Shown here one piece after another: positions 49,250 through 53,430 of a stretch of DNA of 64,000 nt. The DNA comes from Microvenator marinus. Its GTDB lineage: Bacteria > Myxococcota_A > Bradymonadia > Bradymonadales > Bradymonadaceae. Below the pieces are notes generated by a model that saw nothing but the letters and a program-made list of their open reading frames with translations, was not told where the DNA came from and made no database searches. The stretch lies in the NCBI RefSeq assembly GCF_007993755.1, contig NZ_CP042467.1, forward strand, positions 3,744,001 through 3,808,000, written 5' to 3'. Position 1 is the first letter of the stretch. The number at the start of each line of letters is the position of its first letter. A program made the translations under genes and the position numbers.

Positions 49250-49581
49250 TCACCTCCATTCATGGAGCCGAGAAGCCGGTCTGGGGTTACGATAGAAGAG
49301 AGTCGGACTCCAAAGCGGTCGTTGACCACTACGGCTTCGCCGCGCGCAATCAGTACGCCATTGGCGCGAATCTCAAGGGGGTCACCCGATGCCTTGTTGA
49401 GCTCGAGAACCGAGGACGGTCCGAGCTTGAGCAACTCCGCGATCGAGAGCTTCGTGCGGCCAAGCTCGACCGTGATTTCCAAAGGCACGTCGCTAAGGAA
49501 GTCGAGCGCGCGCTTTTGGAGTGATGCCGAAGCTTCCGAAGGTTGAGCCATCAGCTCTGATGATTCTTCGATATTACTCAT
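49246..49581 (-). CDS. fliN: Flagellar switch protein FliN
   Basis: A 111-residue cytoplasmic C-ring component. The ATG at 49581 lies inside the last codons of fliM (8-base overlap). After a 30-residue variable N-terminus comes the SpoA/FliN domain LSDVPLEITVELGRTKLSIAELLKLGPSSVLELNKASGDPLEIRANGVLIARGEAVVVNDRFGVRLSSIV, which is complete. With FliG and FliM it forms the rotor switch that responds to CheY-P. The length is typical of short FliN proteins. Confidence 0.96.
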   Translation of the reverse strand: MSNIEESSELMAQPSEASASLQKRALDFLSDVPLEITVELGRTKLSIAELLKLGPSSVLELNKASGDPLEIRANGVLIARGEAVVVNDRFGVRLSSIVTPDRLLGSMNGGE

Positions 49582-50512
49582 CGTTTTGGTCCTGTGCTTG
49601 AAGGGTGCGGCCGTCTGCCGACCGCAATTGAATTGCGATATTTCCGAAATGGACACTGATGTCGCCGCGGTACTTTGGGACACCAGCAATGCTGACCATG
49701 ACCGGCCTCTCGGCGGGTTGGTTCAGACGAATAACTTCACCGACTTGAAGGCTCAAAATCTGGTCCAGGGTCATTTGAGCTCGACCGAGCTCCGCGACGA
49801 GTTCCACTGGGACGTCTGGAAGCAGCTTTCTGAAGTCGTCTTCCCATGGGTAGTCTCGCTTTTTGCGAGGCTCAGAGGGGCCACTCAGGCGATTGCGAAA
49901 AGGGTCGAGAAGCGCCGAGGGCATGAGCAGTCTCAGCTGCCCTAAACTTTCGCCTTCAGCTCGAATTTCGTAGGAGGTTTGAAGGACCCACTCGTCCTTT
50001 GTGGTCAGGTTTGAGCTCGCAATCCGGGTCTCGATTCGAAGGTGTTTGACCGTGAACGGCACGACCCCTCTCCAAGCGGTTTCCATGGACCTTGCAAATA
50101 CGTGTGTAATGCGGCGCGCGACGCGTTCTTCCACCTTCGAAAGGCGGCTTCTCACTGGAGGTTTAACCGTGCTCGTCCCACCGAAGAGACGGTCGAGAAT
50201 CGCAAAGAAAGTCGGCCAGCTAAGGTCGAGCACTCCAAGGCCGCCGAGTTGTTCGAACTCGAGGACATTGACCACGCCCGGCTCTTGCTCCTCGGTAAGT
50301 TCCCGAAAACGAATGGCGGTGGTTTGTTTTAGCTCTACTTGAACTCGAACCCGAAGAAGGCTTGAGAGCTCGGCTCCGAGAATCCCGGCGAGCCGCTCTT
50401 CGACAGCGACCAAAGACCCTGGCATGCCGCCACGTTCCAGCGGTGCATCCGCCAAGTTGACGGTCTTGGAGTCAAGGTCTTCGATTTGGGTTGATAGAGG
50501 TTCTGCGCTCAT
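49574..50512 (-). CDS. fliM: Flagellar switch protein FliM
   Basis: A 312-residue C-ring protein. The middle CheC-like domain includes RFRELTEEQEPGVVNVLEFEQLGGLGVLDLSWPTFFAILDRLFGG, and the C-terminal SpoA domain includes LLPDVPVELVAELGRAQMTLDQILSLQVGEVIRLNQP. The N-terminal CheY-binding LSQxEIDALL motif of canonical FliM is not visible: the protein begins SAEPLSTQIEDLDSKT. That suggests a different or weaker mode of CheY binding. It heads the fliM-N-O-P-Q-R-flhB operon, with a sigma-54-type promoter 35 bases upstream and GAGG before the ATG. Confidence 0.93.
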   Translation of the reverse strand: MSAEPLSTQIEDLDSKTVNLADAPLERGGMPGSLVAVEERLAGILGAELSSLLRVRVQVELKQTTAIRFRELTEEQEPGVVNVLEFEQLGGLGVLDLSWPTFFAILDRLFGGTSTVKPPVRSRLSKVEERVARRITHVFARSMETAWRGVVPFTVKHLRIETRIASSNLTTKDEWVLQTSYEIRAEGESLGQLRLLMPSALLDPFRNRLSGPSEPRKKRDYPWEDDFRKLLPDVPVELVAELGRAQMTLDQILSLQVGEVIRLNQPAERPVMVSIAGVPKYRGDISVHFGNIAIQLRSADGRTLQAQDQNDE

Positions 50513-50766: not shown

Positions 50767-51528
50767 ATGGATTTCGCCACAATAATCGGACTTGTCGTCG
50801 CATTCGGTCTCATCATCGGGTCAATCCTGGTGGGAGGATCGTTGATGGCGTTTGTAGACGTCCCAAGCCTTTTGATCGTGCTCGGGGGTACTGGAGGCGT
50901 TGCGCTCATCTCGTTTCCTTTGGCGCAGGTGCTTGAGTCTTTCAAGGTGGCGGTCAACGTGTTCAAGTACCCGCTTCCAAACATCAAAGATCAGAATCAG
51001 AAGTTCCTCGAGTTCGCTGAAGCGACGCGTCGAGACGGCATTTTGGCCCTCGAGGGGGCAATCTCCTCCATTGAGGATCCATTCATGCGCCGTGGCCTTC
51101 AACTCCTTGTGGACGGCGTCGACGCGGAAAAGATTGAGGCGATGTTGTGGGACGAACTCGACGGTGTTGCTTCGCGTCACCGACGAGGTGCACAGACGTT
51201 TGAGGCGCTCGGAGCAGCGGCTCCAGCGCTGGGGCTGGTGGGTACGCTCATCGGTCTTGTTCAGATGCTTCAGGCCATGGATGACCCTTCGAGCATTGGT
51301 CCTGCGATGGCTGTCGCGCTCTTGACCACATTTTATGGCGCGCTTTTTGCGAACGTGGTGTTCAACCCGATCGCGGGCAAGCTTCGAGTTCGACATGACG
51401 AAGAGCAACTCGGCAGGCAGCTCGTGATCAAGGGTCTCTTGGGAATCGCTCGCGGCGAGAACCCGCGGATCCTGGGACAGCAACTCGAAGCAGACCTGGC
51501 GCCTTCAATGAGATCGAAAGAGGACTGA
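50767..51528 (+). CDS. motA: Flagellar stator protein MotA
   Basis: A 253-residue inner-membrane stator subunit. The ATG at 50767 follows AAGGAG. Four membrane helices are seen, two near the N-terminus (TIIGLVVAFGLIIGSILVGG and VPSLLIVLGGTGGVALISFP) and two at about residues 145-205. The family block GAAAPALGLVGTLIGLVQML and AMAVALLTTFYGALFANVVFNPIAGKL carries the two functional prolines. The cytoplasmic loop (about 75-140) contacts FliG. It forms the MotA pentamer around a MotB dimer. The gene starts the stator operon, followed after one base by the first motB-like gene. Confidence 0.95.
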   Translation: MDFATIIGLVVAFGLIIGSILVGGSLMAFVDVPSLLIVLGGTGGVALISFPLAQVLESFKVAVNVFKYPLPNIKDQNQKFLEFAEATRRDGILALEGAISSIEDPFMRRGLQLLVDGVDAEKIEAMLWDELDGVASRHRRGAQTFEALGAAAPALGLVGTLIGLVQMLQAMDDPSSIGPAMAVALLTTFYGALFANVVFNPIAGKLRVRHDEEQLGRQLVIKGLLGIARGENPRILGQQLEADLAPSMRSKED

Positions 51529-51529
51529 T

Positions 51530-52192
51530 ATGCCACGCCGTCCCCAAAAGACTGATGAGCCAAAGGAAGATGATTTCATCGTCCTCTTTACGGCCCTTTC
51601 GATGATTCTCCTGGCTTTCTTCATTATGTTGAACAGTATGGCAACAATCGATTCAGCAAGGTCTAGAACGGTGATTAGTTCGTTGGTCGGAACCTTCGGC
51701 AGCATGCCAGGGTTCGAGAAACAACGGACAATCATTGAGCTCGATCACGAAAGACCGGGTGGCCAAACTCAAGGAGAGATCGAGCGAACCCTTCGGCAGA
51801 TTTTAAATGGGGAGTTGGAAGAGCTGGATATCTACACCCAAGATGGTCGGGTTGTAGTGTCAGTGGGAAGCGCGCTGATTTTTGAGCGAGGCGGAACCGA
51901 GCTCTCTCCCAAGTCGTTCAGGACCCTCGATACTCTGGCGGGAATCATCAAGTCGATTGGCATTCCGGTTCGAGTTGAGGGCCACGCTGATCCAGCACCT
52001 GCGAAGCCTCCGAAGTCCAACTGGTACTACTCGACAGCCCGGGCAGCGGCGGTGCATCGGTACCTCGTTTCAGGTCATCAGATACCAGCTGGTTCTGTAG
52101 AGCTCGCGGGTTACGCAGACTTTCGAGCAGACCGTCATGGGAACAAGGTAGCGCGCGTCGAGATCATCTTTCTTCCCGAGGCCCGGCCATGA
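51530..52192 (+). CDS. MotB-like stator protein lacking the proton-carrying Asp
   Basis: A 220-residue protein with one N-terminal membrane helix (residues 16-36, FIVLFTALSMILLAFFIML) and a periplasmic OmpA-like domain. The essential MotB Asp (Asp32 in E. coli) falls at residue 22 and is Ala here (codon 51593-51595). The neighbouring second MotB has Asp at the identical residue number. The peptidoglycan-binding part is well kept: VRVEGHADPAP, SNWYYSTARAAAVHRYL, ELAGYADF and KVARVEI. It may therefore anchor the stator without conducting protons itself. It overlaps the second motB by four bases (ATGA). The family is certain; the role in a mixed dimer is inferred. Confidence 0.88.
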   Translation: MPRRPQKTDEPKEDDFIVLFTALSMILLAFFIMLNSMATIDSARSRTVISSLVGTFGSMPGFEKQRTIIELDHERPGGQTQGEIERTLRQILNGELEELDIYTQDGRVVVSVGSALIFERGGTELSPKSFRTLDTLAGIIKSIGIPVRVEGHADPAPAKPPKSNWYYSTARAAAVHRYLVSGHQIPAGSVELAGYADFRADRHGNKVARVEIIFLPEARP

Positions 52193-52932
52193 GACGTCAA
52201 GCAGCTCCGGAAAAGCGGGGAAGCTCGAACGCTTGGATGGCCACGTTCTCCGACCTCCTCATGCTCATGCTGACCTTCTTCGTGCTCTTGCTCACGATGT
52301 CGAGTCTTGACGCGAAGAAGGTGCGGGAACTCGCAAGAAGCGGCGTGCATCAACAACCGAGCTCGAACAAGGACTCGGCCATCGAGTTTCAAGATAAGGC
52401 GGCACCCCCTCTGATAGCGGGCATGACAAAAGCGCTCGGCAAACTCAACGGCGGAGATGACGACGTCAAAGAGCAAGTAAAGACTCTGATGAAGGAGCTC
52501 TTAAAGGTGTCTGGGATTGCTGGTGAAGCCTGGATTGAGGTTCGCGCCACCGGCGTTCAGGTGACCATCGCAGGTGATATCGCGTTCGACGAGGGGTCGG
52601 CTCAGCTTACGAAAGAGGCGCGGCAATTTGTGGAAGACTACGCAAGGGTGGCCCAGGGGGCAGGCTCCAATGTGAGCGTAGAAACCTATCTGGCGACACA
52701 AGGCAGTTTTGAAGAAGAGGATGCTGGTTGGGAGCTCGCGCTCAAGCGTGCTGATACCGTGGCCAGTACGATCCGCAGGTCTGGCGTTGAAGGGCAATTC
52801 ATAAGGGTGAGCGCACGTGGGGCCCGTCTTGGGGCCGACGAACTTAAATTCGTGCAGGCGGCAGAGGTGCTTCGGCTAGGGCTCATCGTGGGTGAGCCAG
52901 GTGCTGAGGCCTCCGTAGGCACAAAGCAATAG
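52189..52932 (+). CDS. motB: Flagellar stator protein MotB with degenerate peptidoglycan-binding motif
   Basis: A 247-residue MotB. The membrane helix WMATFSDLLMLMLTFFVLLLTM has the conserved Asp22 in FSDL, so it can carry protons. The periplasmic plug region has the usual variable helices. The OmpA-like domain is weakly kept: the position of the GHTD motif reads ETYLATQG, WELALKRADTV keeps the Arg-Ala, and the usual NRRVEI end is AEVLRLGLIV. Wall anchoring may therefore rely on the preceding Asp-less partner. It is ten bases upstream of fliL and belongs to the motA operon. Confidence 0.88.
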   Translation: MRRQAAPEKRGSSNAWMATFSDLLMLMLTFFVLLLTMSSLDAKKVRELARSGVHQQPSSNKDSAIEFQDKAAPPLIAGMTKALGKLNGGDDDVKEQVKTLMKELLKVSGIAGEAWIEVRATGVQVTIAGDIAFDEGSAQLTKEARQFVEDYARVAQGAGSNVSVETYLATQGSFEEEDAGWELALKRADTVASTIRRSGVEGQFIRVSARGARLGADELKFVQAAEVLRLGLIVGEPGAEASVGTKQ

Positions 52933-52941
52933 GAGCTAGAG

Positions 52942-53430
52942 ATGAGTGATGCGAACGAAATGGAAGATGTTGTGGCCCCAAAGAAAAGTATTGGACCTTG
53001 GGTCGCTGCTATTGTGCTGGCACTTCTCTCCAACGCCGGATGGGCAGCCTTTTTTGTCGTGTCTCAGTCCTCGAGCAACGAGCCTGTTGCCCAAGCGCCT
53101 GAGGCGCCAAAAGAGGAGGCCAGCGAGCCTGGGCCAATCATGGATTTGAGCCCATTTGTGGTGAACCTCAACGATTCCGTGAGTGCTCGGTATTTGAGGA
53201 TCGGGATCTCGCTGGAGCTTAGTTCTGAGGCGGACCGGGCGGCTGTTGAAAAGAATCTGGTTCCATTGCGTGACCAGTATATTCGACACCTTTCGAGCCT
53301 TGCGCCCTCTCAGCTGATGGGGGCAGCGGACAAAGACGACCTCAAAGTGGTGTTGATGGAGAAGACTCAGAGTGTGCTTCCAAAGCGGGCCGTTCGAGAG
53401 ATCTATTTTACCGAATTCATGATGCAATGA
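52942..53430 (+). CDS. fliL: Stator-associated protein FliL
   Basis: A 162-residue bitopic protein. The membrane helix at about residues 17-40 (GPWVAAIVLALLSNAGWAAFFVV) is followed by a Pro/Glu-rich linker and a periplasmic domain with MDLSPFVVNLNDSVSARYLRIGISLELSSEADRAAVEKNLVPLRDQYIRHLSSL, matching the FliL/SPFH-like fold. FliL forms rings around the stator and raises torque. The gene follows the second motB and precedes the fliJ-like gene by nine bases. The conserved closing phrase (REIYFTEFMMQ) is intact. Confidence 0.92.
   Translation: MSDANEMEDVVAPKKSIGPWVAAIVLALLSNAGWAAFFVVSQSSSNEPVAQAPEAPKEEASEPGPIMDLSPFVVNLNDSVSARYLRIGISLELSSEADRAAVEKNLVPLRDQYIRHLSSLAPSQLMGAADKDDLKVVLMEKTQSVLPKRAVREIYFTEFMMQ

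What the first reader, a model, noticed from the sequence alone, without database searches (positions are those of the whole stretch)
52189..52932. Complementary decay: two MotB proteins that may form one functional stator dimer
The second MotB keeps Asp22 but its peptidoglycan motif is worn (no GHTD, no NRRVE, though Arg-Ala is kept), while the first keeps the wall-binding motif but lacks Asp. Stators are known to contain a MotB dimer in a MotA pentamer. The sequences suggest an obligate heterodimer, with one subunit conducting protons and the other anchoring. They share a four-base ATGA overlap, which would favour equal synthesis. I know of no described stator with this division of labour.
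Basis: partly seen in the sequence, partly recalled or inferred. Interest (0 to 1): 0.82.

Follow-up and report, generated by a model that had tools for sequence, protein, structure and literature searches.

The report
Flagellar stator with mismatched MotB pair
This bacterium and relatives across several phyla drive their flagella with two different MotB proteins, one of which has permanently lost the acidic residue that carries the driving ion, so the motor probably runs on a lopsided MotB pair with a single ion site instead of the textbook two.

Summary
A motA-motB1-motB2-fliL operon encodes MotB1 with Ala22 where the ion-binding Asp belongs, and MotB2 with Asp22 but no GHTD wall motif; the genes share ATGA. 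It is not decay in one genome. Asp-less MotB (A/S/T) next to an Asp-bearing MotB recurs at about 40 loci in Myxococcota, Nitrospirota, Bdellovibrionota, Thermodesulfobacteriota and others. In a tree built without the Asp column, 38 Asp-less proteins form one clade (SH-aLRT 99). Every Asp-less MotB whose neighbour could be read has an Asp-bearing partner. In the window's order, true FliG and this pair occur in exactly the same 8 of 26 genomes; 26 genomes in all carry no other recognisable MotB, and 25 of them have FliG. Best explanation: a MotA5 stator around an obligate MotB1-MotB2 heterodimer with one ion-binding site (dimer and stoichiometry inferred). I found no description of such a stator; nearest are Aquifex motA/motB1/motB2 and AglRQS, where both B proteins keep Asp. 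New variant of a known kind.

The parts
50767..51528 (+). motA: stator ring subunit (PomA/MotA-like)
   Evidence: PF01618 E 3.7e-29; PomA model 281 bits, below that model's own cut-off of 341. In 35 relatives' MotAs the R90-like, P173-like, P222-like and TM4 Thr-Thr columns are invariant and the E98-like column is E in 31 and Q in 4
51530..52192 (+). motB1: Asp-less MotB with plug/TM helix and OmpA-like wall domain
   Evidence: PF13677 and PF00691; Ala22 in place of Asp; member of the Asp-less clade; model mean pLDDT 83.5 with periplasmic fold nearest MotS/PomB
51593..51595 (+). codon GCC, Ala22, where the ion-binding Asp (E. coli D32) should be
   Evidence: alignments (A20/S10/T5 in 35 MotB1s)
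51980..51991 (+). GHAD (GHTD wall motif, Asp kept) of MotB1
52040..52042 (+). Arg171 of the S-x-x-R-A wall motif of MotB1
   Evidence: invariant in A1, A2 and A4
52189..52192 (+). ATGA overlap of the motB1 stop and motB2 start
   Evidence: sequence; position -4
52189..52932 (+). motB2: Asp-bearing MotB with worn OmpA-like domain
   Evidence: PF13677 E 1.1e-15, PF00691 E 1.2e-9; model mean pLDDT 81.1, OmpA fold kept
52252..52254 (+). codon GAC, Asp22, the ion-binding Asp of MotB2
   Evidence: invariant in all 35 partners and in A3
52684..52695 (+). TYLA where GHTD would be in MotB2 (wall-motif Asp lost)
52747..52749 (+). Arg187, the retained Arg of the RA motif in MotB2
52942..53430 (+). fliL: stator-associated protein, next gene of the operon
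   Evidence: PF03748 E 1.9e-19; follows the pair in most relatives
49574..50512 (-). fliM, divergent neighbour; beyond it fliO, fliP, fliR, flhB, flhA and rod/hook genes
   Evidence: PF02154, PF01052; for the cluster

Best explanation
motA-motB1-motB2 encode one flagellar stator. Five MotA subunits surround an obligate MotB1-MotB2 heterodimer in place of the usual MotB homodimer. Only MotB2's Asp binds and releases the driving ion; MotB1's TM helix is a fixed neutral partner (Ala/Ser/Thr). If the alternating 36-degree cycle of 5:2 motors holds, one site would load once per 72 degrees, so about 5 instead of 10 ions per MotA turn. In the window's family MotB1's OmpA domain is probably the main or only peptidoglycan anchor. 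Shown by sequence: operon, loss of Asp in one member only, single-clade origin, invariable pairing, sole MotBs in many flagellated genomes, wall-motif loss in MotB2. Inferred: the heterodimer, the 1:1 ratio, the ion stoichiometry, the anchoring role.
For: Asp column in 35 triples: MotB1 A20/S10/T5, MotB2 D in 35 of 35; TM columns fixed differently in the two (E. coli numbering: 39 A vs T, 42 I vs V, 36 I vs L, all 35 of 35; 45 mostly N vs L/I/F). 38 Asp-less MotBs form one clade, SH-aLRT 99, Asp column left out. No Asp-less MotB without an Asp-bearing neighbour wherever the contig allows. In the order, FliG with E below 1e-32 occurs in exactly the 8 genomes with the pair and none of the other 18. 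26 genomes have no other MotB_plug match, 25 of them with strong FliG. MotA, MotB1 and MotB2 distances correlate (r 0.73-0.76, 0 of 5000 permutations as high). Family f37: two MotB1s nested in the Asp-less clade carry a TM resembling their own MotB2 with Asp (67-68% identity in the TM, 17-23% elsewhere), as if overwritten by gene conversion, so the two TMs probably use the same slot.
Against: No direct evidence for the dimer; the structure tool took single chains only. A single-Asp stator conflicts with published models in which both Asps are protonated in turn (PMC10659934), so function must be tested. B1-B2 distance correlation is expected from shared inheritance (partial r given MotA 0.48). 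In some genomes other MotBs exist beside the pair, the window's own included (one MotB beside a FliG-like protein, one ZorB). 'Only MotB' rests on draft MAGs for most genomes. With f37 included, the data do not reject the Asp-less set as one clade excluding f37 (p-AU 0.24), so the gene-conversion reading is not certain.
Confidence: 0.7

Rival explanations
1. MotB2 homodimers form the working channel, and MotB1 sits outside the MotA pore as an extra anchor or stator-docking protein (a role like MotY or FliL).
For: MotB2 keeps the Asp; its OmpA fold persists in the model; in roughly a third or more of pairs MotB2 also keeps a full wall motif.
Against: MotB1's TM helix is strongly conserved (I, A, F, F, I invariant in 33 rows), which an outside anchor would not need; in f37 its TM seems to have been replaced by a MotB2-like one; in f1 and others MotB2 lacks the wall motif, so MotB2 homodimers could not anchor in the canonical way.
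Confidence: 0.14
2. MotB1 is a tuner: homo- and heterodimers both form, and MotB1 lowers the power of a fraction of stators in a dominant-negative way.
For: A MotB without the Asp is expected (general knowledge, not tested here) to poison homodimers; both genes share one operon.
Against: The 1:1 adjacent arrangement is nearly invariant over several phyla and no genome with MotB1 alone or at a distance was seen; the TM interface columns differ systematically between the two, which suggests a specific heterotypic pair.
Confidence: 0.1
3. Both channels still conduct: in MotB1 the Ala/Ser/Thr place plus a MotA residue or another site binds the ion.
For: Ser or Thr, which can ligate Na+, occur in 15 of 35 MotB1s.
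Against: Ala is the commonest residue (20 of 35); no acidic residue lies in the MotB1 TM helix except a plug-proximal Asp in two Bdellovibrionota-type loci; MotA pore residues are ordinary.
Confidence: 0.04
4. Plain decay of a redundant duplicate.
For: One motif is missing in each protein.
Against: Open frames, conserved TM columns and operon order across phyla; the Asp is replaced only by A, S or T.
Confidence: 0.02

Closest known systems
MotA5MotB2 / PomA5PomB2 flagellar stators (PDB 6YSF, 6YSL, 8BRI, 8ZYV)
   Same: MotA/PomA-type ring protein with rotor and pore residues kept; MotB plug, TM helix and OmpA-like domain; fliL neighbour; flagellar genes around it
   Different: Two non-identical MotBs; one lacks the ion-binding Asp that the known stators have in both MotB copies; in this family the other lacks the GHTD wall motif
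Aquifex aeolicus motA/motB1/motB2 operon (PMC4525482)
   Same: One motA followed by two motB genes with very different periplasmic parts
   Different: There the two TM regions are 97% identical and both chimeric MotBs worked separately with MotA in E. coli; here the two TMs share about 30% and one lacks Asp
AglRQS gliding motor of Myxococcus (PMC9389320)
   Same: One MotA-like and two MotB-like proteins; whether they form heterodimers is stated to be unknown
   Different: AglQ and AglS both keep the Asp and have TolR-like wall domains, not OmpA-like; not flagellar
Tandem MotB pairs in other families of the window's class (f3, f7; this study)
   Same: motA-motB-motB order; in most, the second MotB keeps the wall motif and the first has lost it
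   Different: Separate duplication in the tree; both keep Asp; TMs mostly homogenised (93-100% identical in 9 of 13)

Membership tests
MotAB/PomAB flagellar stator | MotA-family ring subunit with rotor-facing charges and pore prolines | tested here: met
MotAB/PomAB flagellar stator | B subunit with plug/TM helix and periplasmic OmpA-like domain | tested here: met
   both MotBs
MotAB/PomAB flagellar stator | ion-binding Asp in the B-subunit TM helix of every copy | tested here: not met
   met by MotB2, not by MotB1 (A/S/T in the Asp-less clade)
MotAB/PomAB flagellar stator | peptidoglycan-binding motif (GHTD Asp and RA Arg) in the B subunit | tested here: inconclusive
   MotB1 keeps both residues; MotB2 keeps Arg only; binding itself not tested
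MotAB/PomAB flagellar stator | linked to a flagellar rotor | tested here: met
   flagellar cluster; FliG matches the pair 8 of 8 against 0 of 18 in the order; FliG in 20 of 21 further pair-only genomes
MotAB/PomAB flagellar stator | 5:2 stoichiometry and ion-driven rotation | not testable with these tools
   needs purification, cryo-EM and torque assays
Aquifex-type motA-motB1-motB2 | near-identical Asp-bearing TMs in both MotBs | tested here: not met
   TM identity 19-37% (mean 30) in Asp-less pairs, one Asp missing
AglRQS | two TolR-like B subunits, both with Asp, no flagellum | tested here: not met
   OmpA-like domains, one Asp, flagellar locus

The most novel reading that the evidence does not exclude
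An ancient, multi-phylum class of flagellar stator is built on an obligate heterodimer of two specialised MotBs with a single ion-binding site, so that it moves about half as many ions per MotA turn; in some lineages, including the window's family, it also splits ion conduction and wall anchoring between the two subunits.
Probability: 0.55. Interest if true: 0.92.

Novelty: new variant of a known kind. Interest (0 to 1): 0.82.

Why it matters
Current models of 5:2 rotary motors assume two identical ion sites used in turn. A natural, widely conserved stator with one site would show that this alternation is not required, would predict a different ion cost per turn, and gives an existing system in which to count ions and steps. 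It also shows that motB duplication repeatedly leads to unequal subunits.

Tried and rejected
Single-protein scan of genome contigs found nothing; the alignment query worked. Pseudogene decay was rejected on conservation. A general wall-anchor/ion-channel split was rejected as a rule after finding many pairs with both motifs intact (that count partly overstates the Asp in f2 MotB2s through alignment). Unequal plug charge as a pairing signal was looked at: MotB1 is more basic on average (+2.2 vs +0.9) but the spread is wide, so it is not used. A heterodimer model could not be computed because the structure tool takes one chain. Literature searches for a MotB heterodimer, an Asp-less MotB or a D24N-dominance paper gave nothing usable.

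Full report
What is in the window. Positions 50767-53430 (+) hold motA, motB1, motB2 and fliL, divergent from fliM and a long flagellar cluster (fliO, fliP, fliR, flhB, flhA, flhF-like, rod, P-ring, hook-associated and flagellin genes). MotB1 has Ala22 and MotB2 Asp22 at the ion-binding place; the genes overlap by ATGA. Both have the plug/TM segment and an OmpA-like domain. MotB1 keeps GHAD and the RA Arg; MotB2 keeps the Arg only.

Is it real and conserved? Fifty-eight genomes (own and relatives) were searched. In the window's order, eight of 26 genomes have the pair (G000, G009, G010, G011, G022-G025), and in all eight MotB1 has Ala at the Asp column and MotB2 has Asp. These eight are exactly the genomes with a strong FliG (E below 1e-32); the other 18 have neither (Fisher p 6e-7, which ignores kinship). 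G010, at 8,047,206 bp in one contig, is within 100 bp of the published size of Persicimonas caeni YN101, which bears visible flagella and swims (PMC7188933). G010 and G022-G025 have no MotB_plug match other than the pair.

Beyond the order. A scan of named genomes with an alignment of the Asp-less MotBs used one peptide pattern that lies after the Asp column; it gave 38 loci, and 37 of them hold an Asp-less MotB (A, S or T), the exception being a Butyrivibrio record; six of the 37 are the same contigs as genomes already counted in the order. Record titles place them in Myxococcota/'Deltaproteobacteria', Nitrospirae, Thermodesulfobacteriota, Bdellovibrionales, Sumerlaeota, Anaeroferrophillacea and Lentisphaerae. 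In the Lentisphaerae locus L156 the order is reversed. Wherever the neighbour could be read it is an Asp-bearing MotB (L157 is cut by the contig end; in L143 the partner is split into two frames). A profile search of 379 Myxococcota species gave 12 best matches, all Asp-less and all paired, followed among the 30 inspected by Asp-bearing MotBs. Of 34 further genomes checked, 23 have exactly two MotB matches, 21 of them Asp-less pairs; 20 of those 21 have strong FliG. Most are draft MAGs.

Evolution. With the Asp column removed, 38 Asp-less MotBs form one clade (SH-aLRT 99), apart from their partners, from single MotBs and from the tandem pairs of families f3 and f7. In 35 triples the two MotBs differ by fixed TM residues, and MotA's key columns are kept. 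Distances of MotA, MotB1 and MotB2 correlate strongly, as expected for an operon inherited as a unit. In family f37 two MotB1s are nested in the Asp-less clade but have an Asp-bearing TM close to their own MotB2, with the rest close to the Asp-less sister; gene conversion is the likely cause, though a tree that keeps the Asp-less set apart is not rejected (p-AU 0.24). In most f3/f7 pairs the TMs are 93-100% identical while the rest is 15-29%, as in Aquifex (97% and 23%; PMC4525482). This suggests that tandem MotBs use the same place in the stator.

Wall motif. A column count found both motifs kept in 14 of 35 pairs, only the Asp-less member in 12, only the Asp-bearing member in 5, neither in 4. 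The '5' is inflated by misaligned f2 MotB2s. In f3/f7 the wall-motif Asp is lost from the first MotB in 11 of 13 and kept in the second in 11 of 13, an independent case of one-sided anchoring with both ion-site Asps kept.

Structures. Models of MotB1 (mean pLDDT 83.5) and MotB2 (81.1) show an N-terminal helix and an OmpA-like domain; nearest solved folds are MotS, PomB and MotB periplasmic domains and PA0833. MotB2 thus keeps the fold but not the motif Asp.

Mechanism. From published work on 5:2 motors (PMC9389320 and PMC10659934) each MotB Asp is loaded in turn, one ion per 36 degrees. A heterodimer with one Asp should be loaded once per 72 degrees. This step is inference. Nothing found in the held library describes a stator with an Asp-less MotB; papers outside that library were not searched.

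Verdict. Observation confirmed; interpretation right in its main point (obligate unequal pair), overstated in the second (anchor/channel split). New variant of a known kind.

Noticed in passing
G000:C1:about 5044497-5047707 (locus L101:3498-6708): Second MotA-MotB pair (Asp kept) followed by a 572-aa protein with signal-like start, a TM segment and a weak FliG C-terminal domain (E 6e-5). Several family genomes without true FliG have a similar MotB and a weak FliG match about 2 kb apart, so it may be a non-flagellar rotary system.
   Followed up: partly
G000:C1:about 3570774-3571541 (locus L102:3775-4542, -): MotB-like protein matching ZorB of the Zorya anti-phage system (PADLOC E 7.4e-56); neighbouring genes not examined.
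   Followed up: partly
L072-L084 (families f3 and f7 of the window's class): Independent motA-motB-motB operons, both MotBs with Asp; in 9 of 13 the TMs are 93-100% identical though the periplasmic parts are 15-29%, suggesting gene conversion of the TM; the first MotB has usually lost the wall motif.
   Followed up: yes
L171 (G222) and L177 (G157): MotB1 of the Asp-less clade whose TM looks overwritten by that of its own MotB2, bringing the Asp back.
   Followed up: partly
G401 and G405 (genomes of L150 and L155, Bdellovibrionales-type): Each seems to hold two separate tandem MotB pairs.
   Followed up: no
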